This document shows, piece after piece, positions 5,423 to 21,825 of a stretch of 32,567 bases of DNA. The number at the start of each line of letters is the position of its first letter. Positions within the stretch are counted from its first letter, which is position 1. Both the position numbers and the translations under genes were made by a program. This DNA is from Boseongicola sp. (GTDB taxonomy: Bacteria; Pseudomonadota; Alphaproteobacteria; Rhodobacterales; Rhodobacteraceae), in the NCBI GenBank assembly GCA_028824715.1, contig JAPPCV010000098.1, forward strand, positions 1-32,567, written 5' to 3'. The notes beneath the pieces were generated by a model that searched no databases, was not told where the DNA came from, and saw only the letters and a program-made list of their open reading frames with translations.

Positions 5423-5455
5423 GTGTACGGAATTAAACCGGACTCAGAGTCCTTA
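5423..5455 (+). repeat. Left terminal inverted repeat (33 bp)
   Basis: Identical in inverted orientation to 21793-21825. The tip is GTGTACGGAATTAAACC. It is followed by GGACTCAGAGTCC, itself a palindrome around one base, so each end likely binds transposase as an inverted pair of half-sites. Confidence 0.9.
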
Positions 5456-5569
5456 ATCGGCAGCTGGCGGCGGGGCTGGCGGTGGCTTGCTCGCACCCGT
5501 CACGCCGACGGGCTTCCAAAGCTGCCAGACCGTCACCCCAACGCCCACAAATAAGCGACCCTTAAACAC
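5453..5569 (-). CDS. Possible 38-aa small protein ending in the left repeat
   Basis: A GTG-started frame just after the gp27-type gene encodes 38 residues: a short hydrophobic start (GRLFVGVGVTVWQLW) and a proline/alanine-rich tail, with its TAA inside the terminal repeat. The Shine-Dalgarno is weak and no family is recognised. It may be an artefact of the 120 bases between gp27 and the element end. Confidence 0.2.
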   Translation of the reverse strand: MFKGRLFVGVGVTVWQLWKPVGVTGASKPPPAPPPAAD

Positions 5570-5573
5570 CGCT

Positions 5574-6380
5574 TCACGGCCCTTTGGGCGGGTCGCGCTT
5601 GATGCGGCGGCCGTCCGAGGTATACTTAACGCCACTGCCTTGCTCTTCCGCTTCGCAGATTTCGACGGCCGCCGCCGCATCAGATCTTCCGTCTCTTCGA
5701 GCGGCCCGTTTGTCAGCCCACCCATCATAGTCAAAAGGCTCGTGGATGCCGTAAATGTCTTCGCGAACCTGCCTCAGCGTCTCTTTCGCGCGCTCGCGCT
5801 CGGCATTAACCTCGTACTCGGTAACCTTCCCGCTCAGGGCAGCGCGCAACGCGTCGGCCAAGCCGGGTGATATGCCGCGCTTTTCGGCCACCGCCGAAGC
5901 CCGTTTCTTCGCCACCGCCATCACGGCATGCCGATCCGCCTCCCTCTCATGCCGCAGAGAGGCCAACGCGCGCATGTTCTGGTTGACGCTTTGGGCAAGC
6001 GCCTGGAGCGCCTTGACGTCCAGCTCGTCATTGGCAAGCGCTTCCTGCATCCGCATCATCAGCATGTCGACGGTCGCCGTTGGCACGGCCAGCTCGTCGT
6101 CGCCGGCGGCGCGGCGCATCGCCGTCGCCATCTCGGTCGCGGTGCGCGCCCGCGCTATCGCCTTGGCGGTGATTTTCTGGGCTTTCGCGGCGCTCGCCTC
6201 CGAGTCCGCCTTGCGGCGGCGGCCGTAGCGCTTCACGGCCGACATGCTCACCGTGTGGCCTTGCCCGGCCAGCCAGGCGGCATGCCCCTCATAGCCGCCG
6301 AAGGCGCTCTCCATGAGCCTGTGATCCAAATCCTCGCGGACCCCTGCCGGCAACAGGTCGATGGTGCTGCGGGGTGGCAT
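5574..6380 (-). CDS. Mu gp27-like protein (DUF3486), putative small terminase
   Basis: A 268-aa member of DUF3486, the family of Mu gp27, thought to act as small terminase subunit selecting phage DNA for packaging. The family start RSTIDLLP and the helix-turn-helix-like GHTVSMSAVKRYGRR (about residues 42-56) are clear, followed by long helical regions. The C-terminal ~80 residues are charged and end in a Lys/Pro tail, longer than typical members. The ATG at 6380 has GAGGGG upstream. In Mu-like phages this gene is followed by the large terminase and portal genes. Here it is the last substantial gene before the element end. A packaging-recognition protein without its motor suggests use of another phage's motor, or loss of the late region. 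Confidence 0.8.
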   Translation of the reverse strand: MPPRSTIDLLPAGVREDLDHRLMESAFGGYEGHAAWLAGQGHTVSMSAVKRYGRRRKADSEASAAKAQKITAKAIARARTATEMATAMRRAAGDDELAVPTATVDMLMMRMQEALANDELDVKALQALAQSVNQNMRALASLRHEREADRHAVMAVAKKRASAVAEKRGISPGLADALRAALSGKVTEYEVNAERERAKETLRQVREDIYGIHEPFDYDGWADKRAARRDGRSDAAAAVEICEAEEQGSGVKYTSDGRRIKRDPPKGP

Positions 6381-6393
6381 GCCCGGACGCCCC

Positions 6394-6714
6394 TCAGCGG
6401 CCGCCAGAGGCGCGGGGAGGGCGAGCAACGCCCGCCGGGCACTCGGCCACGTAGTCCACCACGTCGCGCCCCTGCGCGGTCAGGGAGACGCGCCAGGGCT
6501 TGATCTCGGAGCGGGCGTTCCCCACGAGGCCGGCGCTCTCAAGATAGGCCAGCTCGCGGCGGATGACATAGGAGTCCACCGAAGGATACGCCGCCCTCGC
6601 AACGTCCAGGCACATGGCGTCGGTCGCCCCGATCTCGCCGCCGGCATGCACCCTCAGAAGAACGACCCACCGCAGGCCGAGCAACGAAAGCGGGTCGTCA
6701 TCTATGTCCTTCAT
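6394..6714 (-). CDS. VpaChn25_0724-like winged-helix phage protein
   Basis: A 106-aa protein resembling the small proteins that sit directly before gp27 in many Mu-like phages (VpaChn25_0724 family). A winged-helix pattern is visible: LLGLRWVVLLRVH, then VDSYVIRRELAYLESAGLVG as recognition and linker, then a wing WRVSLTAQGRDVVD. The end GVARPPR is typical. Its role in phage is unknown; DNA binding near the packaging genes is likely. The ATG at 6714 has a strong AAGGAG. The stop lies 13 bases before the gp27-like start, so they are co-transcribed. Confidence 0.7.
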   Translation of the reverse strand: MKDIDDDPLSLLGLRWVVLLRVHAGGEIGATDAMCLDVARAAYPSVDSYVIRRELAYLESAGLVGNARSEIKPWRVSLTAQGRDVVDYVAECPAGVARPPRASGGR

Positions 6715-6742
6715 TTCCGGCTCCTTGTGTTTCTGCTTGAAG

Positions 6743-7213
6743 CTATTGGTTGGCACACCATATCGCGGTTTCCGCCGCCCGAATATACTCAATCGCCAAG
6801 CTAATCATTTCAATTGCCGTCTCGTGCACGGCAATGTCCACTTCAGCTTCAGCACCCAAGGCCGCCAGCAGGGCGTCTTGACTGTCGTTTATCCGTTCCA
6901 CCTCGCGCTGAAACCATTCTTCGATTTGCGATGTGCTCAGGCCATCCGGAGGCGTTGCGGCTTTCGCCATCGCTTCGGATCGTGCTGCAACGGTGTCTTC
7001 TCTGGAACTCACCACCGCCAACACGGCGCGCAGCAGTCGACCCGCCGCGTGATCGCCCGCCGCCAATTCATCTGTCGGGTGCCACATTCTCTTACCCGCA
7101 TCGATCATTGCGTTGTATTCGTCTTGACACTGAATCGGCACGTGAGCTGCCGCACTGACCGCAAACGCCAGACTTGTAACGGCTGCCACTGCAATTATCC
7201 CGAAGCTTTTCAT
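6743..7213 (-). CDS. Secreted protein of unknown function
   Basis: A 156-aa protein with a clear Sec signal peptide: MKSFGIIAVAAVTSLAFAVSA, cleavage probably after AAA near residue 23. The mature part is helical and acidic, with few cysteines (one near the new N-terminus, one in WCANQ at the end). I recognise no family. Its place before the winged-helix/gp27 pair is where Mu-like phages often keep lysis-related genes, so a periplasmic lysis accessory is possible but unsupported. The start at 7213 follows GGGAGAAG. Confidence 0.65.
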   Translation of the reverse strand: MKSFGIIAVAAVTSLAFAVSAAAHVPIQCQDEYNAMIDAGKRMWHPTDELAAGDHAAGRLLRAVLAVVSSREDTVAARSEAMAKAATPPDGLSTSQIEEWFQREVERINDSQDALLAALGAEAEVDIAVHETAIEMISLAIEYIRAAETAIWCANQ

Positions 7214-7328
7214 CGATCTTCTCCCCTTTCAGACGCCAGAAACCAGCGTGAACTTCGCCTTCAATACGGTCGGCCCGCAGAGGTTCCGGGCTTGCATCTC
7301 CGCGCCAGCGCCAGCCAGATCGGCCGCC

Positions 7329-8831
7329 TCACGCGACCCGAATGCCGCCGTTGGCAGTCACCTCCAAGTCGACCTCGTAGGTCGCCGGACCGCACACGTT
7401 TCGGACCTCAACGGCGATCCTCACCTTGCCGCCGTAGTCATCAGCAAAATCCCAATGCGAAAGCCTGGGGTCGGAGTCCTTCACGGGCAGGCCATCCGAC
7501 GCGGTCACCTTGCCGGTGATGGTCGACCCGTCCGTTGATGCAACGCTGGTCGAAAGCACGGTGACCGGCCCGCGTATGGCCGGGTCCGCCGTCGGGTTGA
7601 CCGCGCGGATCGTCACGCGCCGCCCTGCTATGGCGTGCGTGACTTCCGGGATGTTGACCGGCGACACGGCCTCAACGGCCCTCACGGCGGCGCTGAACTC
7701 GACCTGGGCCGTCGTAGCGTCGGATGCGTTGCCGACGCGCTGCGCGCCCACGGCGCACTCCAGGGCGACCTCTCGAAGCGCCTGGTCGATCTCGACGCAC
7801 GCCGCCCAATTGTCGATAGCCTGCTGCGACAGAGCGCCCTTGATGCGTTTCTGCTGGCCGGTCGCCGCGGCCTCCAGACGTTCCGTCAGCACGGCCTTGA
7901 GCGTGGGCAAGTCGGAGGGAAGCCCGGCGAACTTCGCTCGAGCGGCTTCAAACTCGCGCGTGAGGTTCGGCAGATCGATGAAACTGAGCAACCTTGCGAG
8001 TGCGGCCTCTCTGGCGGCAAACACTTCGTCAGCCGTTGGAGAACCCGCAAGACCGCCCCGCTCGTCCCTGATGGGAGCAAATAGTTGGTCGTACTTTTTA
8101 CGCACTACGTTATATGCGCTTTCTGCCTCGTTTGTTTGCGAGGTAAGTTGGCCCAAAAGCGAGTGCGCCTGGCCCTTCGTCCAAAGCGGCACGTCGTCGC
8201 CTTTGTCGCTGGTTCTCAGGAAAGCCGGTTCATACTCGCCGCCAGCGTTGTCAGACGCGGAAACGGCGTGAATTAGCGCGGGCATGTGCTCTATGCCGTC
8301 GCCCACGTGGACGGCCGGAAGTCCCGGAAGCACTACCCCGGCAAGCGCCACGTCGTCGCGCAGGTTGTGCATGTCGTACTGCAAGCTGAAAATCTGTGAT
8401 GTGTAGCGCTCCAGAATGTAGGGCCGCAGCTTGGCCCAAAGGGCGCTCCAGGAGGGCTTTAGCGGCAATGTCGACACGTCGAAACCAGAAGCCGGACCTA
8501 CGAACTTGAAGTTCCCTTCGAAGATCATCCAACCGCCTATTTTCGCGCCCCACGGCACTGCGTCCCACTCCGATTTGGTGAACCGCCAAGACCCGGCCCA
8601 ATCGTAACCGTGCCAATCTGCAGGATCGCGCGACGACCAATCGACGGAGTACTCAAAGTCCCATAGCAGGTTCGCTTGTTGAGAAATGCCGAAGCCTTCA
8701 AGCAAACACCGATCGATGACTGTCTTGATCGCGACGGCCCGAATGCCCGCGGATTTTGAATACGGCTCCCTCGCAATGTCAGTATAAGTGCGCCCGTCCG
8801 ATGTCCTAATCCTTCGTGGTCCCGTTGTCAT
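7329..8831 (-). CDS. Unknown 500-aa element protein
   Basis: The ATG overlaps the TAA of the preceding gene (TAATG), showing translational coupling. The N-terminal ~180 residues are rich in Trp and Tyr (WDFEYSVDWSSRDPADWHGYDW), the middle is helical and charged (about 230-370), and the last ~110 residues look beta-rich, ending in an immunoglobulin-like pattern (VTVLSTSVASTDGSTITGKV). I recognise no family. By position, in one operon with the tape measure and the 429-aa I-like protein, it could be a tail-tip or adhesin-type protein. The coordinates are secure: the frame is open throughout and only this start fits the coupling. Confidence 0.75.
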   Translation of the reverse strand: MTTGPRRIRTSDGRTYTDIAREPYSKSAGIRAVAIKTVIDRCLLEGFGISQQANLLWDFEYSVDWSSRDPADWHGYDWAGSWRFTKSEWDAVPWGAKIGGWMIFEGNFKFVGPASGFDVSTLPLKPSWSALWAKLRPYILERYTSQIFSLQYDMHNLRDDVALAGVVLPGLPAVHVGDGIEHMPALIHAVSASDNAGGEYEPAFLRTSDKGDDVPLWTKGQAHSLLGQLTSQTNEAESAYNVVRKKYDQLFAPIRDERGGLAGSPTADEVFAAREAALARLLSFIDLPNLTREFEAARAKFAGLPSDLPTLKAVLTERLEAAATGQQKRIKGALSQQAIDNWAACVEIDQALREVALECAVGAQRVGNASDATTAQVEFSAAVRAVEAVSPVNIPEVTHAIAGRRVTIRAVNPTADPAIRGPVTVLSTSVASTDGSTITGKVTASDGLPVKDSDPRLSHWDFADDYGGKVRIAVEVRNVCGPATYEVDLEVTANGGIRVA

Positions 8832-10120
8832 TATGGAAAACTCCCTCGCCTGTACCAAATGTCTGTCCCGCCACCAGACGTTTCGCGCTCCCAAACGTCG
8901 ATATAGGTCCATCGGAGCCAAAGCCGCGTGCCATCCTGCTGCGTCTCCTCGACTCCCTGAATTTCGTGCACTGCCCGCCTGTTGATGTTTGCAGATGCTT
9001 GTGAATGCGGCGAAGACGACCTGTAGCCCGTGACGCGAATTTGGTCGTAGTATTTCGACGTGTCCGCCACGATGGTCTCCGTCCGCGTGATCGTGGTGGT
9101 CACGCCATCCTCGCCGTCCCTGGCCAAACGTGAAATGCTCCTGGGCGACGTGAATGGATGCCGCACCGCCGCGCCCACTTGCGGCGCTCCTTGCACTCTC
9201 CTTTGAGCCATCCACAAGTATTCGTCCAAGCTCAGGACCGGCGCGGCGTCAAACCAGACAGTCGATGCGCTGCCCGTTATCGTCAGACGCTCCGCCGCAC
9301 CCCAATTCGTGCCCGCCAGCGGCTTCCTCTCGGACTTCCACAATGGCCCGGATCCGCCCGGAACGTTTGTGCTCCAGGTGCGGCCGCCGCGCACCCCTCC
9401 GGTGTATGGCTCCCAGGCATTGTCCGGCTCGCTCCCAGCGGCAACGCTGTTGCCGCCGCGCGAGAACAGGGCCTCGTTGCCTTCGGATATGTAGGCCGCA
9501 ATGCCGGGCGCATCGTAACCCCACGTGTTCTGCGGCGAAGGCGGCGGCGAGGCCGAAGATGTTTTCGCGAAAATCGCCTGGAAGCCGGGCGCGCCTGGAT
9601 CGCGCACGTCCTGCGGCCGATGCGAATACACCGTGTTCAGGACGATCAGCTCGGCATGGGCGCGGTGCCTGTCCGCTGCGCTGCAAGCCGCAACGTAACC
9701 GTCCAGGCCATCGAAGGCGGCCGGGTCGATGAAGTGCGTTGGCCACAAGCCAACGGACCCTGGGATGTCGTCCATTCCCGCAAACGCCAGATGCTTGATG
9801 CCGCGCCCTTTCACCAAGGGGCTGCGCCCGAACCAACGCCCGCGCGCGCACTCTCGAACGAACGCCGGATCAAGATTGCCAAGGCGCGCCTGGATTTGGC
9901 AATAGCGGCTTTCGTCCACCCGCAGCGCCACGACCTGCGCCACCGGTTTCCCAGCCTCATGTCCAATGTAAACCGGGATGGGCAGTGCCGTCCCCGCGAC
10001 GCGGGAACGCAAGAAGTCGGCGGTAAGCGCAACCGGGCGTTGGGTGCGCCCGCACATAATGACACCAGGCGCCGCAATGTCGAACCAGTCCCCCAGCATT
10101 GCGGCGGTCTTTTGTGTCAT
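8831..10120 (-). CDS. Second Mu I-type protein with unrelated C-terminal half
   Basis: A 429-aa protein whose first ~140 residues are a diverged relative of the Mu I-type protease/scaffold at 13137-14693. Shared features in the same order are DWFDIAAPG, PVYIGH, ALRVDESRY, the ARGRWFGRS segment, HLAFAG and IPG. The second half has no relation to a scaffold: it is Gly/Ser/Trp-rich (GGVRGGRTWSTNVPGGSG), then beta-rich up to YIDVWERETSGGGTDIWYRRG. The N-terminal domain may have been recruited as a targeting module for a virion component. The ATG at 10120 is preceded by AGGGGAG. The stop overlaps the next start. Confidence 0.7.
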   Translation of the reverse strand: MTQKTAAMLGDWFDIAAPGVIMCGRTQRPVALTADFLRSRVAGTALPIPVYIGHEAGKPVAQVVALRVDESRYCQIQARLGNLDPAFVRECARGRWFGRSPLVKGRGIKHLAFAGMDDIPGSVGLWPTHFIDPAAFDGLDGYVAACSAADRHRAHAELIVLNTVYSHRPQDVRDPGAPGFQAIFAKTSSASPPPSPQNTWGYDAPGIAAYISEGNEALFSRGGNSVAAGSEPDNAWEPYTGGVRGGRTWSTNVPGGSGPLWKSERKPLAGTNWGAAERLTITGSASTVWFDAAPVLSLDEYLWMAQRRVQGAPQVGAAVRHPFTSPRSISRLARDGEDGVTTTITRTETIVADTSKYYDQIRVTGYRSSSPHSQASANINRRAVHEIQGVEETQQDGTRLWLRWTYIDVWERETSGGGTDIWYRRGSFP

Positions 10121-10184
10121 CCGGAACTCCCCTCTGCCCCGTCATTTTTCGCCGCGTGTGCGCCCTGGGCGTTTCTCCGGGCCT

Positions 10185-10406
10185 TCATGCCCGGAAACCC
10201 GACGGCGCTGTGCGGGCCTCTGACGCGCTTCGTTTCAGCCTCCAGTCCCTCTTGCGCCGCCACTGCCGCCACCGGCGCACCGGGCGGGCAACCGCCTGCG
10301 TCACCATGTCGGCCGCAACGGCCATGCAAAGCATCACGACCAGACCGCACAGCGCCGCCAGGAAGATGACGGTCAAAACGGCACACGAAACAGCCAGGCG
10401 CGCCAT
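10185..10406 (-). CDS. Small membrane protein
   Basis: A 73-aa protein with one strong transmembrane segment at about residues 5-31 (AVSCAVLTVIFLAALCGLVV), followed by a very basic tail rich in Arg and Lys. It begins one base after the tape-measure stop (TGACATG), so it is translationally coupled. One membrane span plus a positively charged tail would suit a holin-like or membrane-anchored accessory protein, but no family is recognised and no endolysin is present. Confidence 0.6.
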   Translation of the reverse strand: MARLAVSCAVLTVIFLAALCGLVVMLCMAVAADMVTQAVARPVRRWRQWRRKRDWRLKRSASEARTAPSGFRA

Positions 10407-10407
10407 G

Positions 10408-12891
10408 TCAAATACCTCCGCCCGACACGCTCCGCCTCATCGCGTCGCGGAGCGGGCCGCCGTTGTCAAGGTCATCGAGCACCACGTCGATGATGATGCC
10501 TCGCGGGTCGAGCCGGATCTGCCCTCGCGTCGCCACCTTCCCCGTGCCCTTGTTCTCCAGGATCACGGTCACGGGCCGCTCCGTCGCAACGCCCGCCCCT
10601 CTTGGCAGCACGGTCTCGCCGCGCTGGAGGATCGCGGGCACCTCGTCCGGCCGCAGGCCCGCCACGCCGCCCTCGTGGTAGCGCGGCGCGAACGCGAAGA
10701 CGCGCGGGTCGACGCTCCTGGAGCGCGTCCCGTGCCCGGCGACGCCGCCCTCGTGAAACAGCCCGCCGAAGATGCCGCCGCCGGCCAGGCCGCCCGCGAG
10801 CGGGCCAAGGACTTGCTGGCGGATCACGATGCGCGCGATGTCGGCGATGATCGAGTTGGCAAGGTCGCTGAACGACAGCTTGCCGGTCTGGACGAAGCTG
10901 ACAAGCGCGTCCTCCATGCCGCGCACGGCTCTGTCGAAACTGCTCGAAACCTCGTCGTTGATGTCCGTTGCATCGCGCTCGTACTCCTTGAGCGCCTCGA
11001 TGATGCTGCCGACCGTGGTGCGCGAGGCGTCTTCGGCCTTGCGCATCGCCTCGGCCAGATCGTCGGCCTCCTGCCGGAGATGCGCGAAGCGCGGCCCGGC
11101 CTCGTCGGCCAGGCGGTGGATCTCCGCCCGCCAGCGGTCGATGGCAAGGATCGCGCGCTCGTAGTCCGCTTCCTCTCCCCTCAGGAGGTCGAGCCTCGCG
11201 TCCTGGATTGCCTCGACGGCTGCGAGGCCGGCCCGCTGCTGGCGTTCGCTCAGGCGCTCGGCCGCGCGGGCCTGGCTTTCGGCCTCTCTCTCCTGCCTCT
11301 GCCTGGCGGTTTCGGCGGACCGTGCCGCCTTCGCGTTTTCCTCGTCCTTGATCCTGCGGACCTCAATGGCAACGTCGCGCTCGATCTGCTCGATCGTGGC
11401 GGCGCGCTGCTCCAGGATCCGCTTCTCCTCGGCGGCGTTGCCGTTCGCGGCGGCCAGCAGCTCCTTGGCAATCCGGTTGGCCTCGTTGATGCGATCCACG
11501 CCATCCAGCTTGACGAGGTCCGCCCTGGAAAGCGTGTTGCGCCGGAACCGCGCCAGCGCCTCGTCATCAAGGTCCACGAGTTCTTGCAGGCCCTTCTCGA
11601 TTGCTTCCAGGTCCGGAGGGATCACGTCGATGCGAAGCGGTCCCGCCGCCGCCTCGAACGCTCTCTGCGTCTTGTCGGCCGCTTGCTGCGCGGTCGCGGA
11701 CAGTTCCTCCAGCTTCGCCTGAAGCGGCGCGATCTGGCTGTCAAGCGCGCGAAGCTGCGCGGTCCTGGGATCGACGCGGGCACCGCGCCTTGGGCTGGCC
11801 TCGATGTCGGCCGCAAGTGCAGCCCTGTCCCTCTGGAGCCGGGCGAGCACCTCGCGGATCTGGGCCGCGCTGTCCGCCGTCACGACGGGCCCGGCTGCGT
11901 CTCCGGGCGAGACGGGTGCGCGGCCGCCCTGCGCGCCCTCCGCTCGCAGCCGTGAGCGGACGCCGGCGGCCGCGTCGTTGACGTCCGTGAAGCGGCTCAG
12001 CACGTTCGCCAGCTCGTCCGCAATCGACTTGAGGAAGGGAAGCACGGTCGAGTCGGCAACGGACGCGCTCAGCAGGTCAATCTCGTTTCCAAGGCGGTTG
12101 AAGGACTGTTGCGCCTGCCTTGCGGCGTCCGGCACCTGGTCCGCGAAGGTCCGGCGAAGCTCCGCCGCGAAGCGTGGCAGGAAGTCTTCGCTCAGAAGCT
12201 CCCCCTGCTCAAGCATCTCGTCCAGTTCGGCGGTCGTGACGCCCATCGCGCGGGCCGCGATCTGAAATGCGCCCGGCAAGCGCTCGCCCAGCTGCTGCCT
12301 CAGCTCCTCGGCGCTCACGCGGCCCTTGGATATGATCTGCTCGATGGCAACCAACGCGCCGTTGGTCTGCTCGGCGCTCAGCTGAAGCACGGTCGACGCT
12401 TCGGCAATCGACGTGAATATCTCGCGGGTCGCCTGCCCTTGGAGCGCGGTGCCGCGCGCGGCGGCCGCCAGCGACGTGAAGCCGTCGGACGCCGCCCGGA
12501 AGCCCAGGCCCAGCCTCTCGGCTTCCTCGCGGGCGAACATCATTTCCCGTGCGCCGTCGGCAACCGATCCGGCCGCGAACGTGAAACGCTGCTCAAGCCG
12601 CTCGAAGGCAACGCCCGTCTCGGCCAAACCGCGGATCGCCTGGGTGGCCTCGCGGGCGATCAGCGCGAAGCCGATGCCGGCGACCGCGCCCTGCAGCCGG
12701 GAGAAGCCGCGCGAGGAGCGTTCCGCCGCGCGGCCCGCCCGTTCGATCTGCGCGGCCGCCTGGCGCGTGCCCTGGCCGGCCTGGCGGCCGGCGCGGGCCG
12801 TCTGCCGCAGTTCCTTCTCGAAGGCGTCGACTTGCCGGATGGCGTTCTGGAGGTCCGCGCGGATCCGCAGGGCGACGTTCAGGTCAGGCAT
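10408..12891 (-). CDS. Phage tail tape-measure protein
   Basis: An 827-aa tape-measure protein, which in siphovirus-type tails sets tail length. Order: N-terminal coiled coil (about 5-60); the tape-measure domain (about 60-290) with the signature KGRVSAEELRQQLGERLPG and GELLSEDFLP; a long charged helical middle (about 340-640); and a C-terminal region (about 680-790) with DRAVRGMEDALVSFVQTG, a Gly-rich stretch, HEGGVAG twice, and RGETVLP, typical of lambda-like tape measures. The ATG at 12891 has GGGAG upstream. No tail tube, chaperone or tip genes are nearby. The 245 bases upstream (12892-13136) hold no gene. Confidence 0.88.
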   Translation of the reverse strand: MPDLNVALRIRADLQNAIRQVDAFEKELRQTARAGRQAGQGTRQAAAQIERAGRAAERSSRGFSRLQGAVAGIGFALIAREATQAIRGLAETGVAFERLEQRFTFAAGSVADGAREMMFAREEAERLGLGFRAASDGFTSLAAAARGTALQGQATREIFTSIAEASTVLQLSAEQTNGALVAIEQIISKGRVSAEELRQQLGERLPGAFQIAARAMGVTTAELDEMLEQGELLSEDFLPRFAAELRRTFADQVPDAARQAQQSFNRLGNEIDLLSASVADSTVLPFLKSIADELANVLSRFTDVNDAAAGVRSRLRAEGAQGGRAPVSPGDAAGPVVTADSAAQIREVLARLQRDRAALAADIEASPRRGARVDPRTAQLRALDSQIAPLQAKLEELSATAQQAADKTQRAFEAAAGPLRIDVIPPDLEAIEKGLQELVDLDDEALARFRRNTLSRADLVKLDGVDRINEANRIAKELLAAANGNAAEEKRILEQRAATIEQIERDVAIEVRRIKDEENAKAARSAETARQRQEREAESQARAAERLSERQQRAGLAAVEAIQDARLDLLRGEEADYERAILAIDRWRAEIHRLADEAGPRFAHLRQEADDLAEAMRKAEDASRTTVGSIIEALKEYERDATDINDEVSSSFDRAVRGMEDALVSFVQTGKLSFSDLANSIIADIARIVIRQQVLGPLAGGLAGGGIFGGLFHEGGVAGHGTRSRSVDPRVFAFAPRYHEGGVAGLRPDEVPAILQRGETVLPRGAGVATERPVTVILENKGTGKVATRGQIRLDPRGIIIDVVLDDLDNGGPLRDAMRRSVSGGGI

Positions 12892-13021
12892 TTCCGGTCT
12901 CCCTTCGGATCTCGGCAAAGTGGGGCGCAGGGGCCACTTTCGGGCATGGCCCTGAGAGGCGCTGTACGCGCCGCTGAGAGGCCACTGGAGTCCGGTGCCG
13001 TGTTGCTCGCGGGAAGCCCTG

Positions 13022-13054: not shown

Positions 13055-13136
13055 CGGCGAAGTTCGGCCCGTCGCGTCCGGCCCGATGGGCGCGGACGGG
13101 CGATTCAGGCCGGATTTGCGCCGGATCCGCACGGTG

Positions 13137-14693
13137 TCAGGCCGGAAGCCCGTGCCGGGCGCGCACCCGGTCGACCGCTGCCGGCGTCGACAGCGCCACG
13201 CCGGCAGCGAAAGCCTCGGCGACAAGCTCGGCAGCCTCGCGGGCGATTGCCTCGCTCGACGGCCCGGCGGCCTCGGCACGGCGCCTTTCCGCCAGCTCGG
13301 CACGGCGCGTTTCCTCATCCGGCGTCGCCGGGCGCGGCGGATCGTCCCGGCCCAGGCCGTGCCTTGCCCGCGCCATGTCCACCGCCACGGGCGTTGCCAG
13401 CGTGCTGCCTTTGCGTTCGGCGAGATGTATCAGTCGCCGCGCCTCGTGGGCGATTGCCTGGTTGGAAGGCCTGCCGTCGCCGGAAGCGTCGCTCGACGCA
13501 AAAACGGCGACCGCTTGGCGGGCGTCGAGGGTCTCGCCTCTTTCGGCCGCATCGGCCTGCGCTTCGCGCGCGGCGAGCATGACGGAGAGGTTGCGCATCT
13601 GGTCCGGCAGCGGCGCAACGCCGAACTCGAAGCGCGCAATGTCGACCGCCTGCGCGGGAGTCAGCTCGACGGAAAGGGGCAAGGCCTTTCTGATCAACCT
13701 GGTCGCGTGATTGGCAATCGCTTGGTCCGAAACGCCCCGGCCGTTGCCGTCCGGCCCGGCCAGGTCGTGGCGGCCCGCACCGCGCCTGTCGCGCCAGACG
13801 ATCTCCGCGAAGGTCGCGCCTGACCCCAGCGCGGCGTCTTTGTATGGGGGAACCCAGTTCTTGCCCTTGTAGGGCGTGTCCATTTCTCCGGTTAGAATGC
13901 TCCAGCCCCACACGTGTCCGTCGAGTTCGTCGACAACCTTCTGGGCCGCCGTCCCGTTTCCCGTGTTGGCCAGCGCGCGGATCGCCTTCATGGCCTTGTC
14001 CGCGTCCGTGAGATACTGGACTGCCATTTTCGAGTTGTTGGCCGCTTCGCGCCCCGACCACTCCGCAAGCCGCCGCGCCCTGTAGGCCAGATCCTCGGCA
14101 AGGGCCGCGTTCATCTTTTCATGAATGCGCTTTACCATCGCGTCGACCGCCTTGAGTTCGCGGCCAATTTCGGTGTCGTCGAACGCCACGCCGTCGGCGA
14201 ATTGCAGGAGCGTCATCGTCGTGAATTTGGACGCGCCATCCGCGACGGCGCGGCTCGCTATCACCTCGCGGTCGAGGGTCGGCGCGCAAAGCATCGTCAC
14301 GCCCGCCTCGGGTGCGGCGAACTGCGCCGGCTGCAGTCCCGGTATGGCTGGCGCGCGGCCGCCCAGGAAGCCCAGGTGCCTCACCTTGTCGCCCAGAATC
14401 GCGAGCGAGCGTCCGGCGTAACGGCCCTCCTCGACCGCCTTGCGGAAGGCAGGCATGAGCCGATGGACCTTTGCCTGGAGTTTGCCGTTGAACATCCGCA
14501 GGCCGGCCACCCATCCGTACGCGGGCGCATCAAGCGCCGGGTGCCCGACCACGACCGGCGCGGGTTGGTCCGGATCGTAGGCGTCGGCGAGCCGCTGCAG
14601 CCGCGCCTCCGTCAACTGGACCTCCCTGCTCCGCGCATCGGTGAACGTGCCCGGCCGGGCCACGTCAAACCAGTCGTCAAGTGCCTTTGCCAT
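13137..14693 (-). CDS. Mu I-type phage protease/scaffold with repeat-expanded tail
   Basis: A 518-aa protein of the Mu gpI family, the head maturation protease and scaffold. N-terminal domain marks: DDWFDVARPG, PVVVGHPALDAPAYGWV (about 46-62), LQAKVHRLMPAF, and RYAGRSLAI near 91-99, where family members carry the conserved Ser. The tail is unusual: four imperfect repeats at about 322-358, 369-398, 410-447 and 480-516, each of the form S-x-x-AIAxxAxxL...L-T-P-x-x-AVDxARxRHGL. Ordinary members are shorter, with, to my knowledge, one such unit near the end. The ATG at 14693 (upstream GAGAGGCGG) is chosen over the longer open frame because the family begins there. No capsid protein substrate is encoded in the element. 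Confidence 0.8.
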   Translation of the reverse strand: MAKALDDWFDVARPGTFTDARSREVQLTEARLQRLADAYDPDQPAPVVVGHPALDAPAYGWVAGLRMFNGKLQAKVHRLMPAFRKAVEEGRYAGRSLAILGDKVRHLGFLGGRAPAIPGLQPAQFAAPEAGVTMLCAPTLDREVIASRAVADGASKFTTMTLLQFADGVAFDDTEIGRELKAVDAMVKRIHEKMNAALAEDLAYRARRLAEWSGREAANNSKMAVQYLTDADKAMKAIRALANTGNGTAAQKVVDELDGHVWGWSILTGEMDTPYKGKNWVPPYKDAALGSGATFAEIVWRDRRGAGRHDLAGPDGNGRGVSDQAIANHATRLIRKALPLSVELTPAQAVDIARFEFGVAPLPDQMRNLSVMLAAREAQADAAERGETLDARQAVAVFASSDASGDGRPSNQAIAHEARRLIHLAERKGSTLATPVAVDMARARHGLGRDDPPRPATPDEETRRAELAERRRAEAAGPSSEAIAREAAELVAEAFAAGVALSTPAAVDRVRARHGLPA

Positions 14694-14712
14694 CGTTTCC
14701 GCCTCTCTCGTT

Positions 14713-15651
14713 TCAGGGTGCCCAGGCCGCCCAGCCGCGCCGCTCGTCCGGCGCGAAAAGCTCCAGGTAAGGGCCGGGTACAAGCCGCTCGATCCGCGCG
14801 TTGCACTCGACCGGCTTGCCGCCGTGCGGCTCGCGCGGTGCAATGATGGCGCTCGGCACGCCCTTGTCCATGCGTCGCGGCCTGCCACGGATGCCGAGCA
14901 AGCAGATTGCCGTCTCCCTGCGGGTCCAGCATGCCGGCTCCGGCTCGCCTTCCTTCCAGTACTCGAAGGCGGTCGTGCGATAGTCGAAGCCCCATGCGTC
15001 GATCAGCGCGAACGCGTCCAGGACCCGCTCGCTTTCCGTCCAGAGGAACAGGGCGCAGTCGCGCGCCGCCATGTCGCCCACGGGCAGGGCCTTCAGCTCG
15101 TCGAGCGTCATGTCCGGCCAGGGCCGCTCGAAGGGCCGGCAATCGCAGGCTCTGCCGCAGCGCTCGAAAAGCCAGGGCGGGTCCGCGAGGATCGCGCCGT
15201 AGGGTCCGGCTCCCGCTATGTCCTCAAGCGTCACCGGGCGCGCGTCCTGCCCGTCCGGCGCGAGCGCGGCCTTGATCTCGCGGGCGGTCGCGTCCGGGCG
15301 CACCACGCCGCCGTCGACCAGCCCGTCGAACGTCTCGCGGTCGTGGCCGCATAACGCAAGCAGCGCCGCCTGCGACGTGGGCAAATCGAACAAGCGTGTC
15401 CGATTTGCCCCTTGCAGCACGCGCCGGATGTTCGGGTCCTTCACGACCTTCATCCGGCGCGAGGCCGCGCGCTCGTTCATGCCTATCCGTTCCAGCCAGG
15501 GAAGCCATCTGCCGTGGCGGAGCTTCCCCTTGGCATCGGCCAGCACCATGGAGCCTTCAAGATAGCTTTGCACCGAAAATCCGGCGTGATGCCGCCACCT
15601 GTCCTGAAGCGTCTTCTCGATGTCGGCCAGTTCGTTTGCGGTTTCCGTCAT
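14713..15651 (-). CDS. DUF3102/MT-A70 adenine methyltransferase
   Basis: A 312-aa two-part protein. Residues 5-75 look like DUF3102 (ELADIEKTL, SMVLADAKGKLRHGRW, AASRRMKV), a module found with DNA-binding phage and plasmid proteins. Residues about 150-305 are an MT-A70-type N6-adenine methyltransferase with the catalytic DPPW at 157-160, ALFLWTESERVLDAF, and EYWKEGEPEPACWTRRETAI. It probably methylates adenine in the element's DNA, an anti-restriction role comparable to Mu Mom modification; this is inference. The ATG overlaps the preceding stop by 4 bases, so it belongs to the early operon. Confidence 0.82.
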   Translation of the reverse strand: MTETANELADIEKTLQDRWRHHAGFSVQSYLEGSMVLADAKGKLRHGRWLPWLERIGMNERAASRRMKVVKDPNIRRVLQGANRTRLFDLPTSQAALLALCGHDRETFDGLVDGGVVRPDATAREIKAALAPDGQDARPVTLEDIAGAGPYGAILADPPWLFERCGRACDCRPFERPWPDMTLDELKALPVGDMAARDCALFLWTESERVLDAFALIDAWGFDYRTTAFEYWKEGEPEPACWTRRETAICLLGIRGRPRRMDKGVPSAIIAPREPHGGKPVECNARIERLVPGPYLELFAPDERRGWAAWAP

Positions 15652-15842
15652 GCCGCCTCTCCCTGAGCGATTGCGTCGTAACATCCCTTGCAGAGGTCCA
15701 CCGGGTAGCCTTCCCCGTCAAAGACCCACCACTTGTGCGGCACGTCAGGCACCCGCCCGTTGGGCTTGCCGCACTCGTAGCAGGCGAAGCCCCGGCGCGG
15801 GCGCTCGACGTTCGGGAAGCGGGCCGTGTCGTGCATCGTCAT
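15648..15842 (-). CDS. Small zinc-ribbon protein
   Basis: A 64-aa protein with two CxxC pairs, CYEC at residues 21-24 and CKGC at 51-54, separated by a Trp-rich segment (HKWWVFDGEG). This predicts one zinc-ribbon. It overlaps both neighbours by 4 bases (ATGA), so it is translated as part of the early operon. No specific function can be assigned. Confidence 0.7.
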   Translation of the reverse strand: MTMHDTARFPNVERPRRGFACYECGKPNGRVPDVPHKWWVFDGEGYPVDLCKGCYDAIAQGEAA

Positions 15843-16573
15843 GCGCCCTTCCTTACGCCGCCCTTGCGGGTGGCGATTGCCACGTCGGCCAGGCAGCTGT
15901 CGGCGACCTCGCGGAATTCGCGCCGCTCCTTTTCGGGCACGCCGTGCTCCTCGGCCCAGAACTCCATGAAGCTGACCATGTCCCGGATTCGCTCGGCGGC
16001 GTGATCGGCCTCGATGCCCTTGACGGCGTCGGGGTCCTGCGTCGCAAGGAAGTCTTCCGCGAAGTAAATCAGGTACCGCCTGAGCGCGGCATATTCCGCC
16101 GGCGTCGGCTCGACCGGCCCGATCTGGCCGGCGGCGGCCATGTGCCGGAGCAAGTCATGGCTGATGCCGCGTCGCGCCGCCCCGATCCATGTGACGAGTT
16201 TCGGGAACAAGGAGTCGGCCACTTCCTTGCACGCGACCACGGGATGAAACATCGGCACGAAAGCCTTGTAGCATCCAATCAGGTCGTGCAGCACGTCCGG
16301 CGTCGGCTTCTCTATGGTGCCATGCGCATCGAGCACGGCTTCCATCGCCAGGAACAGCGCCCGCTTGTCCAGCGTCTCGCCCTTCCGGCGCAGCGTGACG
16401 TCAAGGCCGAACGCGCCTGCGAGGCGCGACGCGTTGTCCAGCTGCGGAACCTTTCCACTGCGCAGGTCCGAAAGCTGCGACCGCCGCACTCCGGCACCAT
16501 CCAGCATCTGCGACGTCTCGCCGGGGACGGCCTCGTGCTCGACTGCCTTCAACAGTGCCTGCGCTGTCAGCAT
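15839..16573 (-). CDS. HTH (Xre-like) regulatory protein
   Basis: A 244-aa protein whose N-terminal ~60 residues form a helix-turn-helix of the Xre/Cro type: MLDGAGVRRSQLSDLRSGKV then NASRLAGAFGLDVTL. The remaining ~180 residues are helical and not recognised. It could be the element's repressor or a regulator of the late genes, as no other classical repressor is present. It lies downstream of GemA, unlike the Mu c repressor, which sits at the left end. I chose the ATG at 16573 (preceded by GGGAGAGG), as the upstream extension overlaps gemA and has shadow composition. Confidence 0.7.
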   Translation of the reverse strand: MLTAQALLKAVEHEAVPGETSQMLDGAGVRRSQLSDLRSGKVPQLDNASRLAGAFGLDVTLRRKGETLDKRALFLAMEAVLDAHGTIEKPTPDVLHDLIGCYKAFVPMFHPVVACKEVADSLFPKLVTWIGAARRGISHDLLRHMAAAGQIGPVEPTPAEYAALRRYLIYFAEDFLATQDPDAVKGIEADHAAERIRDMVSFMEFWAEEHGVPEKERREFREVADSCLADVAIATRKGGVRKGA

Positions 16574-16589
16574 CCTGCCTCTCCCGTCA

Positions 16590-17033
16590 TCATGCGGCCT
16601 GGCCGCCGCCCTTGCGGGCGACCATCGCCTGCAGCGCCGTAATGACCTTCTGGCCCTGACCATACCCGACAAAGGCCACGTCCGAAACTCCGAACGTCCG
16701 TTCAAGCCACTTGCCAAGGCTCCGGTCGTCGCCCTCGCCGTCCGTGAAGGAACTCCAGAGGTCGCGGATGTACGTTATCTGGTCTGGCGACGTCCGGCCC
16801 TCTCGCCATCCGAGTTGCCTGGCGCGCGGACGCTCGCGGCCTTTCGGATCGCGGCGCGTGAAGCCCTTCGTCTCGAACTCGCCCAGCAGCGTCTTGAAGT
16901 CGTCGCGGTGCACGTCCTTCGTCGACCGGACGCCCGCGATCCGCTGGAGCATGGCGCGATAGTCCGCGTCCTCCATCCCGACCTTGCGCTGCGCGGTGCG
17001 CAGCATGGCCACCTGTTTTTTCGTGATATTCAT
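16590..17033 (-). CDS. gemA: GemA-like protein (Mu gp16)
   Basis: A 147-aa member of the Mu gp16/GemA family (DUF1018). The family start ITKKQVAMLRTAQRKVGM, then DADYRAMLQRIAGVRSTKD and the later WLERTFG are clear. In Mu, GemA influences host gene expression and DNA topology during early development. It overlaps the MuB stop by 4 bases, keeping the A-B-gemA order of Mu. Confidence 0.85.
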   Translation of the reverse strand: MNITKKQVAMLRTAQRKVGMEDADYRAMLQRIAGVRSTKDVHRDDFKTLLGEFETKGFTRRDPKGRERPRARQLGWREGRTSPDQITYIRDLWSSFTDGEGDDRSLGKWLERTFGVSDVAFVGYGQGQKVITALQAMVARKGGGQAA

Positions 17034-17857
17034 TCCCAGAACCTCATCACGTCCGACTCGGCGGTGACGTTTTCCAGGGAAAGCCGCTGGCCCCTCATCT
17101 CGATGCGGTCCACAAGCTGCCTCACGAACCGCAGGCCGCCGCGCGACACCGCTTCCTTCGCCAGCAGCTCAATCGCCTCGCTTCCCTGGACGCCGAGAAA
17201 CCCGGCGAACTTCGCCGCGTCGTCATGCATGTCGATTTCGGTGATGCGGACGGGCATTGTCAGGCGGCCGGTGAACTGCCCCACCGTGGGGCGCTTGCGG
17301 AAAGCCTCGTACGTCTCCTCGTTGAAGGCGAACGCCATCGGGACGCCGCTGCGGTCGGCAATTGAGCGCAGGCAGTCCAGAACGTCATCCCTGAGCAGCT
17401 GCGCCTCGTCGACCAGAAGCATGCAGTCCCATCTCTTGAAGAACGCGGCGAGCGCGCGCCCGTTTTCGTGCTCGTTCGGCTCCCTGTTGTCGGGGTGCGC
17501 GGGCGTGGCAGAATAGGTCCAATGGTGGCCTTCGCTCTGTCGCTTGTCCTTGATCGCGTCGCGGATCTTGCCCAGGACCTGCCGGGCGGTGCCCTTGAAC
17601 GCCGTGAAATGAAGCGCGGCCGGATTGCCGGCGGCGTACGAGTTGAGGAACGTGCTCTTGCCGCATCCGGCCGGCCCGAAGATGCCGACGTTAAGCGTTG
17701 CCGTCTTGTGGCCGCCCAAGCCGGCCATGCTCCGCGCCATCCGGATTTCGCCCTTCATGAGCACGACGGAGTCCGTGAGGCACACCTGCCGTCGTTTTTC
17801 CTCCCTCTTGGCCCGTTCGGCCTCAAGGTCCAGCACCTTGTCACTGTCTGTCATCAC
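17030..17857 (-). CDS. MuB-like transposition ATPase
   Basis: A 275-aa AAA+ ATPase. Walker A is GPAGCGKST (61-69) and Walker B MLLVDE (146-151). In Mu, MuB polymerises on target DNA, chooses the insertion site away from the element itself (target immunity) and stimulates MuA. It starts within the MuA stop (4-base overlap) and overlaps gemA by 4 bases, so the three are translationally coupled. It lacks the long N-terminal DNA-binding domain of Mu's own B, as many relatives do. Confidence 0.9.
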   Translation of the reverse strand: MMTDSDKVLDLEAERAKREEKRRQVCLTDSVVLMKGEIRMARSMAGLGGHKTATLNVGIFGPAGCGKSTFLNSYAAGNPAALHFTAFKGTARQVLGKIRDAIKDKRQSEGHHWTYSATPAHPDNREPNEHENGRALAAFFKRWDCMLLVDEAQLLRDDVLDCLRSIADRSGVPMAFAFNEETYEAFRKRPTVGQFTGRLTMPVRITEIDMHDDAAKFAGFLGVQGSEAIELLAKEAVSRGGLRFVRQLVDRIEMRGQRLSLENVTAESDVMRFWE

Positions 17858-20273: not shown

Positions 20274-20696
20274 TCAGGACTTCGCCGCGCCCTTGCCGCC
20301 ATTCTTGGCGGCATGGGTCGCGTTGCCGTCCAGCCCTGGTCCGGGCACCGGCGGCTCGTCATCCCTCAGATGGCGCGCCAAGGAGTCGGCAAACTCAGCA
20401 AGGCCGGTCGCGGTCGGGAGCGTCAGCTTGGCAAGCATGGCCACGCCCCAAAGGCAAACGATCTGACGTTGCGCGACCTCGAAATCCATGTCTGACATGA
20501 GCGTGTCCAGCAACGCGGCGATACCACTGACGCACATGTCAAGGTCGTATCCCATGCCCTGGATTTCGGCGGCGGTCAGTTCGCGGTCCTGGACGTTCTC
20601 GATGCCGAGCGCAAACGCCCAGGCATTGTGCGCCCGCCTCGCGGCGTCGCGCACCGGGTCTTGAGAAACGGATTCGTTTGGTGGTAGTGGTCCCAT
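20274..20696 (-). CDS. Unknown 140-aa early protein
   Basis: The first gene of the leftward early operon. The ATG at 20696 follows an excellent AGGAGGT, which fixes the start despite a longer open frame. The N-terminal half is helical (DAARRAHNAWAFALGIENV), the centre has hydrophobic stretches (ISGIAALL-like and QRQIVCLWGVAML), and the C-terminus is a Gly/Lys/Ala tail. No cysteine pairs or HTH are evident and I recognise no family. By position it corresponds to the ner/early regulator slot of Mu, but it does not resemble Ner. Confidence 0.65.
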   Translation of the reverse strand: MGPLPPNESVSQDPVRDAARRAHNAWAFALGIENVQDRELTAAEIQGMGYDLDMCVSGIAALLDTLMSDMDFEVAQRQIVCLWGVAMLAKLTLPTATGLAEFADSLARHLRDDEPPVPGPGLDGNATHAAKNGGKGAAKS

Positions 20697-20944
20697 CGGG
20701 AAACCTCCTAAGCAGATTAGGTTGTTTCCGGGTCGTGCTCGATCTGCGGTCGGGCGCGTCCGGCGCGGGTCGCCTCGCCGCGATCCGCGCCACGACCATC
20801 CGACAGTTGCGGGCAGGGTGCAAGTCGATTCTTGCGGCGTCGCCGGCAGCGTGGCATGGTGCGCCTGCCCGTGCCGCATTGTCCCTGCTTGAGGTTCGGT
20901 TTCACCTTTGCGGTGCGGGCATCATCCGGCGACAAGGGACTTTC
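20697..20944. promoter_or_regulatory. Divergent early control region
   Basis: These 248 bases separate the leftward early operon from two rightward zinc-protein genes and should hold both promoters. A perfect inverted repeat GCAAG-N6-CTTGC lies at 20820-20835, and a further TTGC at 20807-20810 makes a second inverted pair with the first GCAA. These are candidate operator half-sites. I cannot place -10/-35 boxes with confidence in this GC-rich DNA. Confidence 0.4.
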
Positions 20945-21166
20945 ATGGCAGCGGACGGCGACGGGTTTCAGGACAGGCGCGAGTGCGGGCGGTGCGGCCG
21001 CTGGATGCAGCGGGTGGCCGACGGCGGCATTGAGTGCGCGTACTGCCGTTCTGCCGAACGGGACGGCGAGCGTGTTTGCGGCATGTGCGGCGACCGTTTC
21101 AGACGCCAGGGCGGCCTGGACAACTGCGGCCGTTGCCTGGCCGCGCATCCTCAGCTTCGGCACTGA
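20945..21166 (+). CDS. Zinc-ribbon protein, 73 aa
   Basis: A small protein with three or four CxxC pairs: CGRC, CAYC, CGMC and CGRC in order, enough for two zinc-ribbons. It has an AAGGGA Shine-Dalgarno before the ATG at 20945. It is transcribed toward the element's right end, opposite to the transposition genes, in the place and direction of the Mu c repressor, but it has no HTH. It may regulate by protein contact or bind nucleic acid through the ribbons. Confidence 0.65.
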   Translation: MAADGDGFQDRRECGRCGRWMQRVADGGIECAYCRSAERDGERVCGMCGDRFRRQGGLDNCGRCLAAHPQLRH

Positions 21167-21170
21167 CGGC

Positions 21171-21632
21171 ATGGCGGCTCGTGATCTTGTTCCGGTGATG
21201 CAGCGCGTTGCGGCTCTGGCGGATCGCGCGGACGTTTCGGCGCGCGGCTTGCGTCGCGGTCCTTCTTCGCATCATTGCGACTGCCGGGCGATCCTGGAGG
21301 AGCTGACCGGCCAGAAGCCGGACGCCGATTGGCGACCGAGCCGGTCGCCTGACGCGGCGTCGGTTTCGTGCCTTGCGAAGTCGGTTCGGCTTCTGGCGTC
21401 GATGCTGGCGGCGACGCAGGGCGCGGCGATCCCGGTTGCGGGCGTTCTGGCCGGCCTTGGCGAGGATGGCGACGCGTTGCCGGCGACGGCTGTTGCGGCG
21501 CGCTGGCGCGAGTGCCTGACGTGCCGCGCCCCGTTCAAGTCGGAGCATGACGGCCACCGTTTGTGCGACGGCTGCCGCTCGGCCTCGGCGACCGTTTCGG
21601 AGGGCCGCGTTCCGCACAGACGCCGGGCGTGA
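21171..21632 (+). CDS. Zinc-ribbon protein, 153 aa
   Basis: Starts 4 bases after the previous gene's stop, so the two form one small operon. The N-terminal ~110 residues are helical, with an HCDC pair near residue 36 and hydrophobic helices (VRLLASMLAATQGAAIPVAG). The C-terminus has a zinc-ribbon CLTCRAPFKSEHDGHRLCDG followed by a Cys, a pattern shared in spacing with the CGMC...CGRC part of its neighbour. No family name can be given. Its stop lies 160 bases from the right terminal repeat. Confidence 0.65.
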   Translation: MAARDLVPVMQRVAALADRADVSARGLRRGPSSHHCDCRAILEELTGQKPDADWRPSRSPDAASVSCLAKSVRLLASMLAATQGAAIPVAGVLAGLGEDGDALPATAVAARWRECLTCRAPFKSEHDGHRLCDGCRSASATVSEGRVPHRRRA

Positions 21633-21760
21633 CGTTTTTGGGCGGCTTCCACGCTTGATTAGGCGTCGTTGAACGGACTTTCAATCGACATTTGAGCGAA
21701 GCGATCCCGGCACTGTTTGGCTCGGCTCGGGCCATGATCCGGGCCGCCACAGCCCGCAAC

Positions 21761-21773
21761 GGATTGAGGACTC
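21761..21773 (-). repeat. Inner copy of transposase-site motif, right end
   Basis: GGATTGAGGACTC resembles the inner box of the terminal repeats (GATTAAGGACTC) with one or two differences and lies 20 bases inside the right repeat. It gives the right end a second binding site, as Mu-type ends have. The rest of 21633-21792 shows no gene. Confidence 0.5.
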
Positions 21774-21792
21774 AGCCCGGAAAGGGCCGGAA

Positions 21793-21825
21793 TAAGGACT
21801 CTGAGTCCGGTTTAATTCCGTACAC
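21793..21825 (-). repeat. Right terminal inverted repeat (33 bp)
   Basis: Exact reverse complement of 5423-5455. It ends CCGTACA(C), so the outermost bases fit the TG...CA tips of Mu-family elements. It contains the palindromic GGACTCTGAGTCC core. Confidence 0.9.

What the first reader, a model, noticed from the sequence alone, without database searches (positions are those of the whole stretch)
5423..21825. A capsid-less Mu-type element that may be a phage satellite
Seen: complete MuA/MuB with all catalytic residues, perfect ends, intact tightly packed genes, a gp27-type small terminase, two I-type protease/scaffold proteins and a tape measure, but no large terminase, portal, capsid, tail tube or lysis enzyme. 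Known: satellites such as P4 and PICIs carry scaffold-like and small-terminase-like proteins to redirect a helper's capsids. Inference: this could be a transposing satellite of a Mu-like phage. A large internal deletion of a normal prophage is the main alternative.
Basis: partly seen in the sequence, partly recalled or inferred. Interest (0 to 1): 0.78.

Follow-up and report, generated by a model that had tools for sequence, protein, structure and literature searches.

The report
Jumping satellites of Mu-like phages
The element is probably not a broken virus but one of an old, widespread family of small jumping genetic parasites of Mu-like bacterial viruses, which carry only a few virion-assembly genes and seem to depend on a complete virus for the rest of the particle.

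Summary
It encodes MuA, MuB, GemA, a Mu-I-type protease/scaffold, a tape measure, a second I-like protein, gp26 and gp27; no large terminase, portal, coat or tail tube was found.

A second copy (16,918 bp) lies at the same locus in a sister species, inverted, with the same gene set, a near-identical transposase (dS 0.002), and gp27 and I genes with dN/dS about 0.4.

Many MuA relatives are compact elements with only coat, I and/or tape-measure genes (35 of 131 loci). On the MuA tree, compact and full-phage loci need two label changes, undetermined loci left out; the window's clade of 57 rows holds no full phage. In Rhodopseudomonas palustris the compact element's I, coat, tape measure and Mor are 57-65% identical to those of a co-resident Mu-like prophage; MuA/MuB do not match.

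Deletion of a normal prophage does not explain the family. A transposing satellite that modifies helper virions is best supported. No helper was found in this genome; particle transfer is untested.

The parts
5234..5237 (.). left copy of 4-bp direct repeat TGCC (target duplication)
   Evidence: unoccupied sites in same-genus genomes
5238..5265 (-). outer right end of the element, TGGACCGTCCGA-AATTAAACCGGACTC
   Evidence: same outer end in copy 2
5321..5344 (+). inverted subterminal copy of the end motif
5574..6380 (-). gp27-type small terminase subunit; dS 0.33, dN/dS 0.40 against copy 2 (228 of 268 residues aligned)
   Evidence: PF11985, phrog_426
6394..6714 (-). gp26-like protein; dN/dS 0.08 against copy 2
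   Evidence: phrog_436; 37% to B3 gp26
6743..7213 (-). small protein with signal-like N-terminus, no clear family
7329..8831 (-). tail-associated protein (tailX): 40-42% to a gene downstream of a tail J-type gene in G587; variable between copies; probable adhesin (inferred)
8831..10120 (-). second I-like protein (prot2): I-type N-terminus fused to an unknown C-terminus; variable module
   Evidence: no family match
10408..12891 (-). tape measure protein, 827 aa
   Evidence: PF20155, PF09718, phrog_2335
13137..14693 (-). I-type protease/scaffold protein (prot1): protease domain, replaced middle, three copies of the C-terminal hairpin
   Evidence: phrog_976
14713..15651 (-). MT-A70 DNA methyltransferase
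   Evidence: PF05063, phrog_359
15839..16573 (-). HTH protein, probable regulator; dS 0.34, dN/dS 0.37
   Evidence: PF01381 below cut-off
16590..17033 (-). GemA (Mu gp16)
   Evidence: PF06252, phrog_286
17030..17854 (-). MuB target-DNA activator ATPase
   Evidence: phrog_296; PF13401
17854..19950 (-). MuA transposase
   Evidence: phrog_310
20274..20696 (-). small ORF, unknown
20945..21166 (+). zinc-ribbon protein 1, divergent from MuA
   Evidence: PF12773 below cut-off
21171..21632 (+). zinc-ribbon protein 2; homologues beside MuA in relatives
   Evidence: phrog_13335
21790..21829 (+). left (MuA-side) end, TGCCGTGTACGG-AATTAAACCGGACTC read inwards
21830..21833 (.). right copy of 4-bp direct repeat TGCC

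Best explanation
A transposing phage satellite. Shown from sequence: a complete Mu-type transposition module with transposon ends; and a family of elements of the same MuA lineage (8-17 kb where both ends could be placed) that carry few virion genes (coat, I protease/scaffold, tape measure; in the window also gp26/gp27 and an adhesin-like pair) with no large terminase, portal or tail-tube gene found. Inferred: the element lies repressed in the chromosome (HTH protein). When a Mu-like helper grows, it is activated and replicates by transposition with its own MuA/MuB. Its altered I protein joins the helper's coat and redirects head assembly; gp27 with the helper's large terminase directs packaging to the element; its tape measure and adhesin-like proteins enter the helper's tail. 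Sister elements bring their own coat as well. The helper supplies large terminase, portal, tail tube, baseplate and lysis.
For: (1) A second copy with the same gene set in another species; flanking chromosomal genes dS 0.19-0.63 (0.03 in the cut DUF2852 fragment) but MuA/MuB dS 0.002-0.005, so recent horizontal movement of at least this part; the more diverged genes stay open, with dN/dS 0.08-0.57 for gp26, gp27, prot1, TMP and tailX (no significance test). (2) Insertion site unoccupied in four same-genus genomes; TGCC on both sides. (3) 35 of 131 MuA loci are compact: 27 with coat, 26 with I, 10 with TMP; by the label's definition they have no TerL, portal, MuF, lysin, TerS, sheath, tube, hub or J in the stretch held; 16 of the 35 have over 9 kb held on both sides of MuA. 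(4) Compact and full loci on the MuA tree differ by 2 label changes when the 41 undetermined rows are left out; the window's clade of 57 holds 0 full. (5) Bounded elements: TG..CA ends with 4-bp repeats in L121, L123, L027, L049, 0.05-0.12 expected by chance in each; chromosomal genes after the last phage gene in L060, L083, L027. (6) gp27/TerS without TerL: 0 of 6 loci of the compact clades with over 2.5 kb of sequence after it have TerL; 15 of 15 full loci with over 1.6 kb do. (7) A Mu portal in 5 of 16 compact-element genomes against 31 of 385 in the class, Fisher p 0.009; in R. palustris I 65%, coat 57%, TMP 65% and 58% over two pieces, Mor 59% over 82 aa, MuA/MuB without hit. (8) That I is 202 aa against a 356-aa frame in the prophage: protease domain joined to a similar C-terminal motif with the middle missing; the window's I has a replaced middle and three C-terminal hairpins.
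Against: No helper in the window's genome: no Mu portal, Mu F or Terminase_6N match, though it is a 181-contig bin. 11 of 16 compact-element genomes lack a Mu portal. No evidence of packaging, induction or transfer. Copy 2 has no direct repeat at its ends and lies at the same locus, so it could be an inversion and not a second insertion. With undetermined rows counted as a state, the compact label alone needs 22 changes on the tree (shuffled mean 31.7) and all three states 31 (shuffled mean 59.5); the tree is a quick one with single support values and a long window branch. TMP, GemA, Zn1 and orfS have dN/dS 0.57-0.67, Zn2 1.72, and the methyltransferase differs by 6 amino-acid-changing and no silent changes. 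Satellite and prophage TMPs in R. palustris are about equal in length (688 and 707 aa), so tail shortening is not supported. 42 of 131 loci are undetermined, three compact loci (L103, L178, L179) also have a Mu G-like gene, and the label rule sees about 10 kb or less each side.
Confidence: 0.77

Rival explanations
1. A defective Mu-like prophage that lost most virion genes by internal deletion.
For: Genes are phage-derived, and no helper is in this genome.
Against: Same gene set in a second, partly diverged copy with open frames; compact elements form deep clades without full phages; gene order differs from Mu-like phages, with I and TMP before gp25-27; sister elements of the same design are bounded units of 8-10 kb.
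Confidence: 0.08
2. A transposon whose phage-derived structural proteins act as a decoy or defence against phages (dominant-negative I, TMP, coat) without being packaged.
For: Satellites often interfere with helpers (recalled); a sister element, L200, carries an MmeI-type restriction gene.
Against: Of 10 element proteins scanned, PADLOC matched only the methyltransferase and, weakly, MuB (E 0.006); gp27 and adhesin-like genes are not expected in a decoy; most of the element is far closer between the two species than their chromosomes are.
Confidence: 0.1
3. An autonomous small phage whose remaining virion genes are too diverged to recognise.
For: tailX, prot2 and several small ORFs have no family match.
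Against: Sister elements of 8-10 kb leave little room for terminase, portal and a tail; a tailX homologue lies downstream of a tail J-type gene, not at a terminase or portal position.
Confidence: 0.05

Closest known systems
Mu-like transposable phages (Mu, B3, KS10, RcapMu, RR1-B)
   Same: MuA, MuB, GemA, gp26/gp27, I, TMP gene types; TG..CA ends
   Different: 16.6 kb instead of about 37-39 kb (records); no TerL, portal, Mu F, coat, tube, baseplate or lysis gene found; gene order differs; 4-bp direct repeat (Mu's 5 bp is recalled); separate MuA clade
Capsid-forming PICIs (cfPICI)
   Same: Sister compact elements carry their own coat and protease genes and lack a tail module
   Different: Transposase, not integrase; no portal or terminase found; the window element has no coat gene; carries a tape measure, which a cfPICI would take with the helper's tail (cfPICI features from a passage of PMC10945586 and recall)
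PLE of Vibrio cholerae (TcaP), P4 (Sid), SaPIs (alternative scaffold)
   Same: A satellite scaffold protein that re-specifies assembly of helper coat proteins is the proposed role of prot1 (PMC10945586, passages)
   Different: prot1 is an I-type protease/scaffold homologue, not an external scaffold; integration by Mu-type transposition
PICIs with small-terminase redirection (recalled)
   Same: gp27 without a large terminase
   Different: gp27 is of the Mu family; no integrase family in the scans

Membership tests
Mu-like transposable phage | MuA and MuB transposition module with catalytic residues | tested here: met
Mu-like transposable phage | complete virion set (TerL, portal, coat, tail tube, baseplate) | tested here: not met
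Mu-like transposable phage | 5-bp target duplication (recalled for Mu) | tested here: not met
   4 bp in window, L121, L123, L027, L049; none in copy 2 and L070; an asymmetric 4-bp match in L200
phage satellite (general) | lacks genes for a complete particle but carries assembly- or packaging-specifying genes | tested here: met
   by sequence similarity:
phage satellite (general) | lineage of its own, not a single deletion of a prophage | tested here: met
   tree, second copy
phage satellite (general) | a compatible helper phage exists | tested here: inconclusive
   5 of 16 compact-element genomes hold a Mu-like prophage with portal and large terminase; none seen in the window's genome
phage satellite (general) | packaged and transferred in helper particles | not testable with these tools
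   needs induction and virion DNA sequencing
cfPICI | own capsid genes (portal and terminase too, recalled), helper tails only | tested here: not met
   no coat, portal or TerL in window; compact relatives have coat but no portal or TerL found
PICI / P4-like | integrase-based integration and their replication genes (recalled) | tested here: not met
   no integrase or primase family in scans of 15 element proteins; transposase and transposon ends instead

The most novel reading that the evidence does not exclude
An old, widespread lineage of Mu-type transposing satellites in Alpha- and Betaproteobacteria that carry only the genes which specify a virion (scaffold/protease, coat, tape measure, small terminase, adhesin) and borrow its bulk parts from Mu-like helpers. 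In several of them the I protein keeps the protease and a C-terminal motif but loses, replaces or multiplies what lies between, which would be a new way to re-specify capsid assembly; some also override the tail through their own tape measure and adhesins.
Probability: 0.55. Interest if true: 0.92.

Novelty: new variant of a known kind. Interest (0 to 1): 0.84.

Why it matters
The known satellite families integrate by site-specific recombinases as far as I recall. A satellite lineage that moves by Mu transposition and carries tape-measure and coat genes without portal or terminase would be a new family of phage parasites, could explain small 'defective Mu prophages', and points to a ready two-element system (Rhodopseudomonas palustris JSC-3b, with both a compact element and a Mu-like prophage) in which helper dependence, capsid size control and tail takeover can be tested directly.

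Tried and rejected
Single-deletion prophage: rejected by copy 2, the tree and gene order. Tail-length change as the use of TMP: not supported (688 and 707 aa in R. palustris). A whole-family end finder with 24-nt repeats and 5-bp duplications gave only noise; a narrower test near real repeats found 4-bp repeats. In the window that test gave three 4-bp matches among 36 TG/CA pairs (0.14 expected); I took the one with symmetric ends that also fits copy 2 and the unoccupied sites. It gave none in copy 2 and L070 and only an asymmetric one in L200. Structure of tailX: useless (mean pLDDT 34.6). Structure of prot1: mean pLDDT 56.5; herpesvirus proteases rank first in the PDB, but the best E is 1.8e-3, rmsd about 15, and none passes 0.001, so a hint only. 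I-length comparison (29 satellite rows, median 297 aa, against 12 phage rows, median 366; p 0.0016) is confounded: several reference phages are counted from residue 1, a few satellite rows are partial, and both copies of the window's element are in it. Viral-contig scans with single proteins found nothing; phage records held no match to MuA, prot2 or tailX. Mu F was found in 8 of the 16 compact-element genomes and 0 of 3 of the window's genus; no background was measured for it, so I do not count it. Literature: seven searches listed no paper on Mu-type satellites in the held library; I saw listings, plus passages of PMC10945586 and PMC11389934; preprints and most subscription journals are not held.
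Full report
What is there. The window is one 32,567-base contig of an unnamed 5.24-Mb genome in 181 contigs, in which the element is single-copy. Family scans of 15 element proteins identify, on the minus strand from the MuA side: MuA, MuB, GemA, an HTH protein, an MT-A70 methyltransferase, an I-type protease/scaffold (prot1), a tape measure, a second I-like protein (prot2), tailX, a small protein, a gp26-like protein and gp27. Two zinc-ribbon ORFs lie divergent at the MuA end. Flanking genes are chromosomal (acetolactate synthase small subunit, arginyl-tRNA-protein transferase, DUF2852). No large terminase, portal, coat, tail tube or lysis gene was found by family scans or with the proteins of Mu-like phages.

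Ends. A second copy (contig named as MAG Boseongicola sp. SB0662_bin_57; G587, which I take to be the same assembly as same-genus G594, since contig numbers and coordinates agree) lies at the same chromosomal locus in the opposite orientation. The sites differ by small gaps, and the G592 genome (L231) carries another element about 120 bp away. Copy 2 spans 445-17362 of its contig, has no direct repeat and lies within about 20 bp; whether it is an independent insertion or an inversion is open. Of 8 genomes of the genus, the two with these copies hold the element; three others have only short or weak matches.

Selection and movement. Between the copies MuA and MuB have dS 0.002-0.005, while chromosomal flanking genes have 0.19-0.63 (0.03 in the cut DUF2852 fragment). 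Within the element, gp27 (dS 0.33, 228 of 268 residues), the HTH protein (0.34), tailX (0.59, 334 of 500 residues) and the one alignable piece of prot2 (0.97, 52 of 429 residues) are far more diverged than TMP (0.024). dN/dS is 0.08 for gp26, 0.40 for gp27, 0.39 for prot1, 0.57 for TMP, 0.42 for tailX; Zn2 is 1.72, and the methyltransferase has 6 amino-acid-changing and no silent changes (no significance test). So the element is a mosaic that exchanges modules while its frames stay open, and much of it moved between species recently.

Family. The MuA alignment scan of genome contigs kept the best 80 of 104 confirmed loci; the viral scan gave 51. With a category scan, 131 loci were labelled: 54 full, 35 compact, 42 undetermined; a few are near-copies of each other. 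Compact means coat, I or TMP within 9.5 kb downstream of MuA and none of TerL, portal, MuF, lysin, TerS, sheath, tube, hub or J in the stretch held. Sets are I+MCP 16, MCP 5, I+TMP 4, MCP+TMP 4, I 4, I+MCP+TMP 2; copy 2 itself is one of the 35, and L103, L178 and L179 also have a Mu G-like gene. Coat, protease or tape-measure calls were checked with Pfam/PHROGs in L060, L073, L083, L089 and L027. Chromosomal genes lie after the last phage gene in L060 (moeA), L083 (Ku and LigD, about 1.2 kb on) and L027 (decarboxylase, FtsW). Ends with 4-bp repeats bound L121 (9,585 bp), L123 (9,046), L027 (8,078) and L049 (8,865). In 40 kb held for L027/L028 and for L049/L050 no other Mu-type virion gene was found. 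L121 and L123 share the window's AATTAAACCGG-like end motif. For several other compact loci the stretch held ends soon after the last gene, so they are less certain.

Tree. Of 128 MuA rows (51 full, 36 compact with window and L200 set compact by hand, 41 undetermined) the compact/full label needs 2 changes with undetermined rows left out; counted against all other rows, compact needs 22 changes (shuffled mean 31.7) and full 10 (shuffled mean 40.2). The window is in a clade of 57 rows, 32 compact and 25 undetermined, SH-aLRT 98; a second compact clade of 10 rows (4 compact, 6 undetermined) holds 7 betaproteobacterial and 3 viral-contig rows. The tree is a quick one, and the window row is long, so its exact place inside the clade is unsure. 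L200, its nearest row, belongs to an element of about 14 kb (ends less firm) with gp26, gp27 and an MmeI-type gene and no head gene in the ORFs scanned.

gp27 without large terminase. In full loci with at least 1.6 kb of sequence after TerS, TerL follows in 15 of 15; seven more full loci have under 1 kb. In six loci that fall in the compact clades and have at least 2.5 kb, it follows in none. The six are related to each other, and in four of them (L064, L114, L135, L141) the tblastn match to gp27 covers only 52-58 residues.

Helper. In 16 genomes with well-covered compact elements, 5 hold a Mu portal, against 31 of 385 in the class (Fisher p 0.009, or 0.005 for the 14 alphaproteobacterial genomes; taxa are not matched). 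All five portals lie in a Mu-like map with MuA, TerS, TerL, portal, Mu F, I and coat; four also show tail genes, while in G618 no tail gene was seen in the 30.7 kb held. In R. palustris JSC-3b (G612) the compact element's I (65%), coat (57%), TMP (65% and 58% in two pieces) and Mor (59% over 82 aa) match the resident prophage; MuA and MuB gave no hit. In three of the other four (G620, G624, G618) the coat matches at 43-48%; in G613 it does not. The window's genome has no Mu portal, Mu F or Terminase_6N match. G587 has a contig with a tail J-type gene followed by a tailX homologue.

Mechanism hint. The R. palustris element's I is 202 aa, the prophage's open frame 356 aa: the protease domain is joined to a C-terminal motif like the prophage's with the middle missing. 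I frames of about 180-210 aa from the start of the domain are also seen in L078, L089, L099, L114 and L137, though not each ends in the same motif. The window's prot1 keeps the conserved protease positions, has an unrelated middle, and repeats the C-terminal hairpin three times, seen in sequence and as three predicted hairpins (323-356, 411-444, 480-513). That these bind the coat is inferred, by analogy with satellite scaffolds such as TcaP and Sid (PMC10945586, passages).

Verdict. Satellite reading favoured at 0.77; decoy or defence 0.10; deletion prophage 0.08; hidden autonomous phage 0.05. The decisive experiment, virion DNA of an induced strain that holds both elements, could not be run.

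Noticed in passing
L250 127-9934 (G592:C167): A third, different element sits about 120 bp from the window's insertion point in a same-genus genome: own rve/Mu-transpos_C transposase (610 aa), HNH, I (50% to prot1 over 124 aa), B3-type coat, a 737-aa prot2-like and a 445-aa tailX-like protein.
   Followed up: partly
L198 14120-20000 with L199, and L202 818-5099: In two Rhodospirillales bins an I-coat-G cluster (with gp36-, terminator-, tube- and 240-aa tape-measure-like genes in L198/L199) sits beside the same histidinol dehydrogenase and fabG-like chromosomal genes; looks like a vertically inherited, possibly gene-transfer-agent-like module built from Mu-type genes.
   Followed up: partly
L200 about 3650-18060: Mu-type element with gp26/gp27, a DnaA C-terminal-like ORF, an MmeI-type restriction-methylation gene and a DUF3037 gene.
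   Followed up: partly
window 5249-5344: A short pair of inverted end motifs next to the right end, like a miniature element or extra transposase sites; a palindromic arrangement also lies at the left end of L200.
   Followed up: no
L194 about 12160-13950: In copy 2 the prot2 region reads as two overlapping ORFs, an I-like domain and a separate downstream protein, where the window has one gene.
   Followed up: no
L196 (G587:C429): Small contig with a phage tail J-type gene, fibre-like frames and a tailX homologue, followed by a frame that looks like release factor 2 (my reading of the translation): possible tail end of a prophage.
   Followed up: partly
L027, L121, L123 element ends: These three compact elements share outer ends TGACGCGCGAC and TGTTGTGTAAC.
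   Followed up: no
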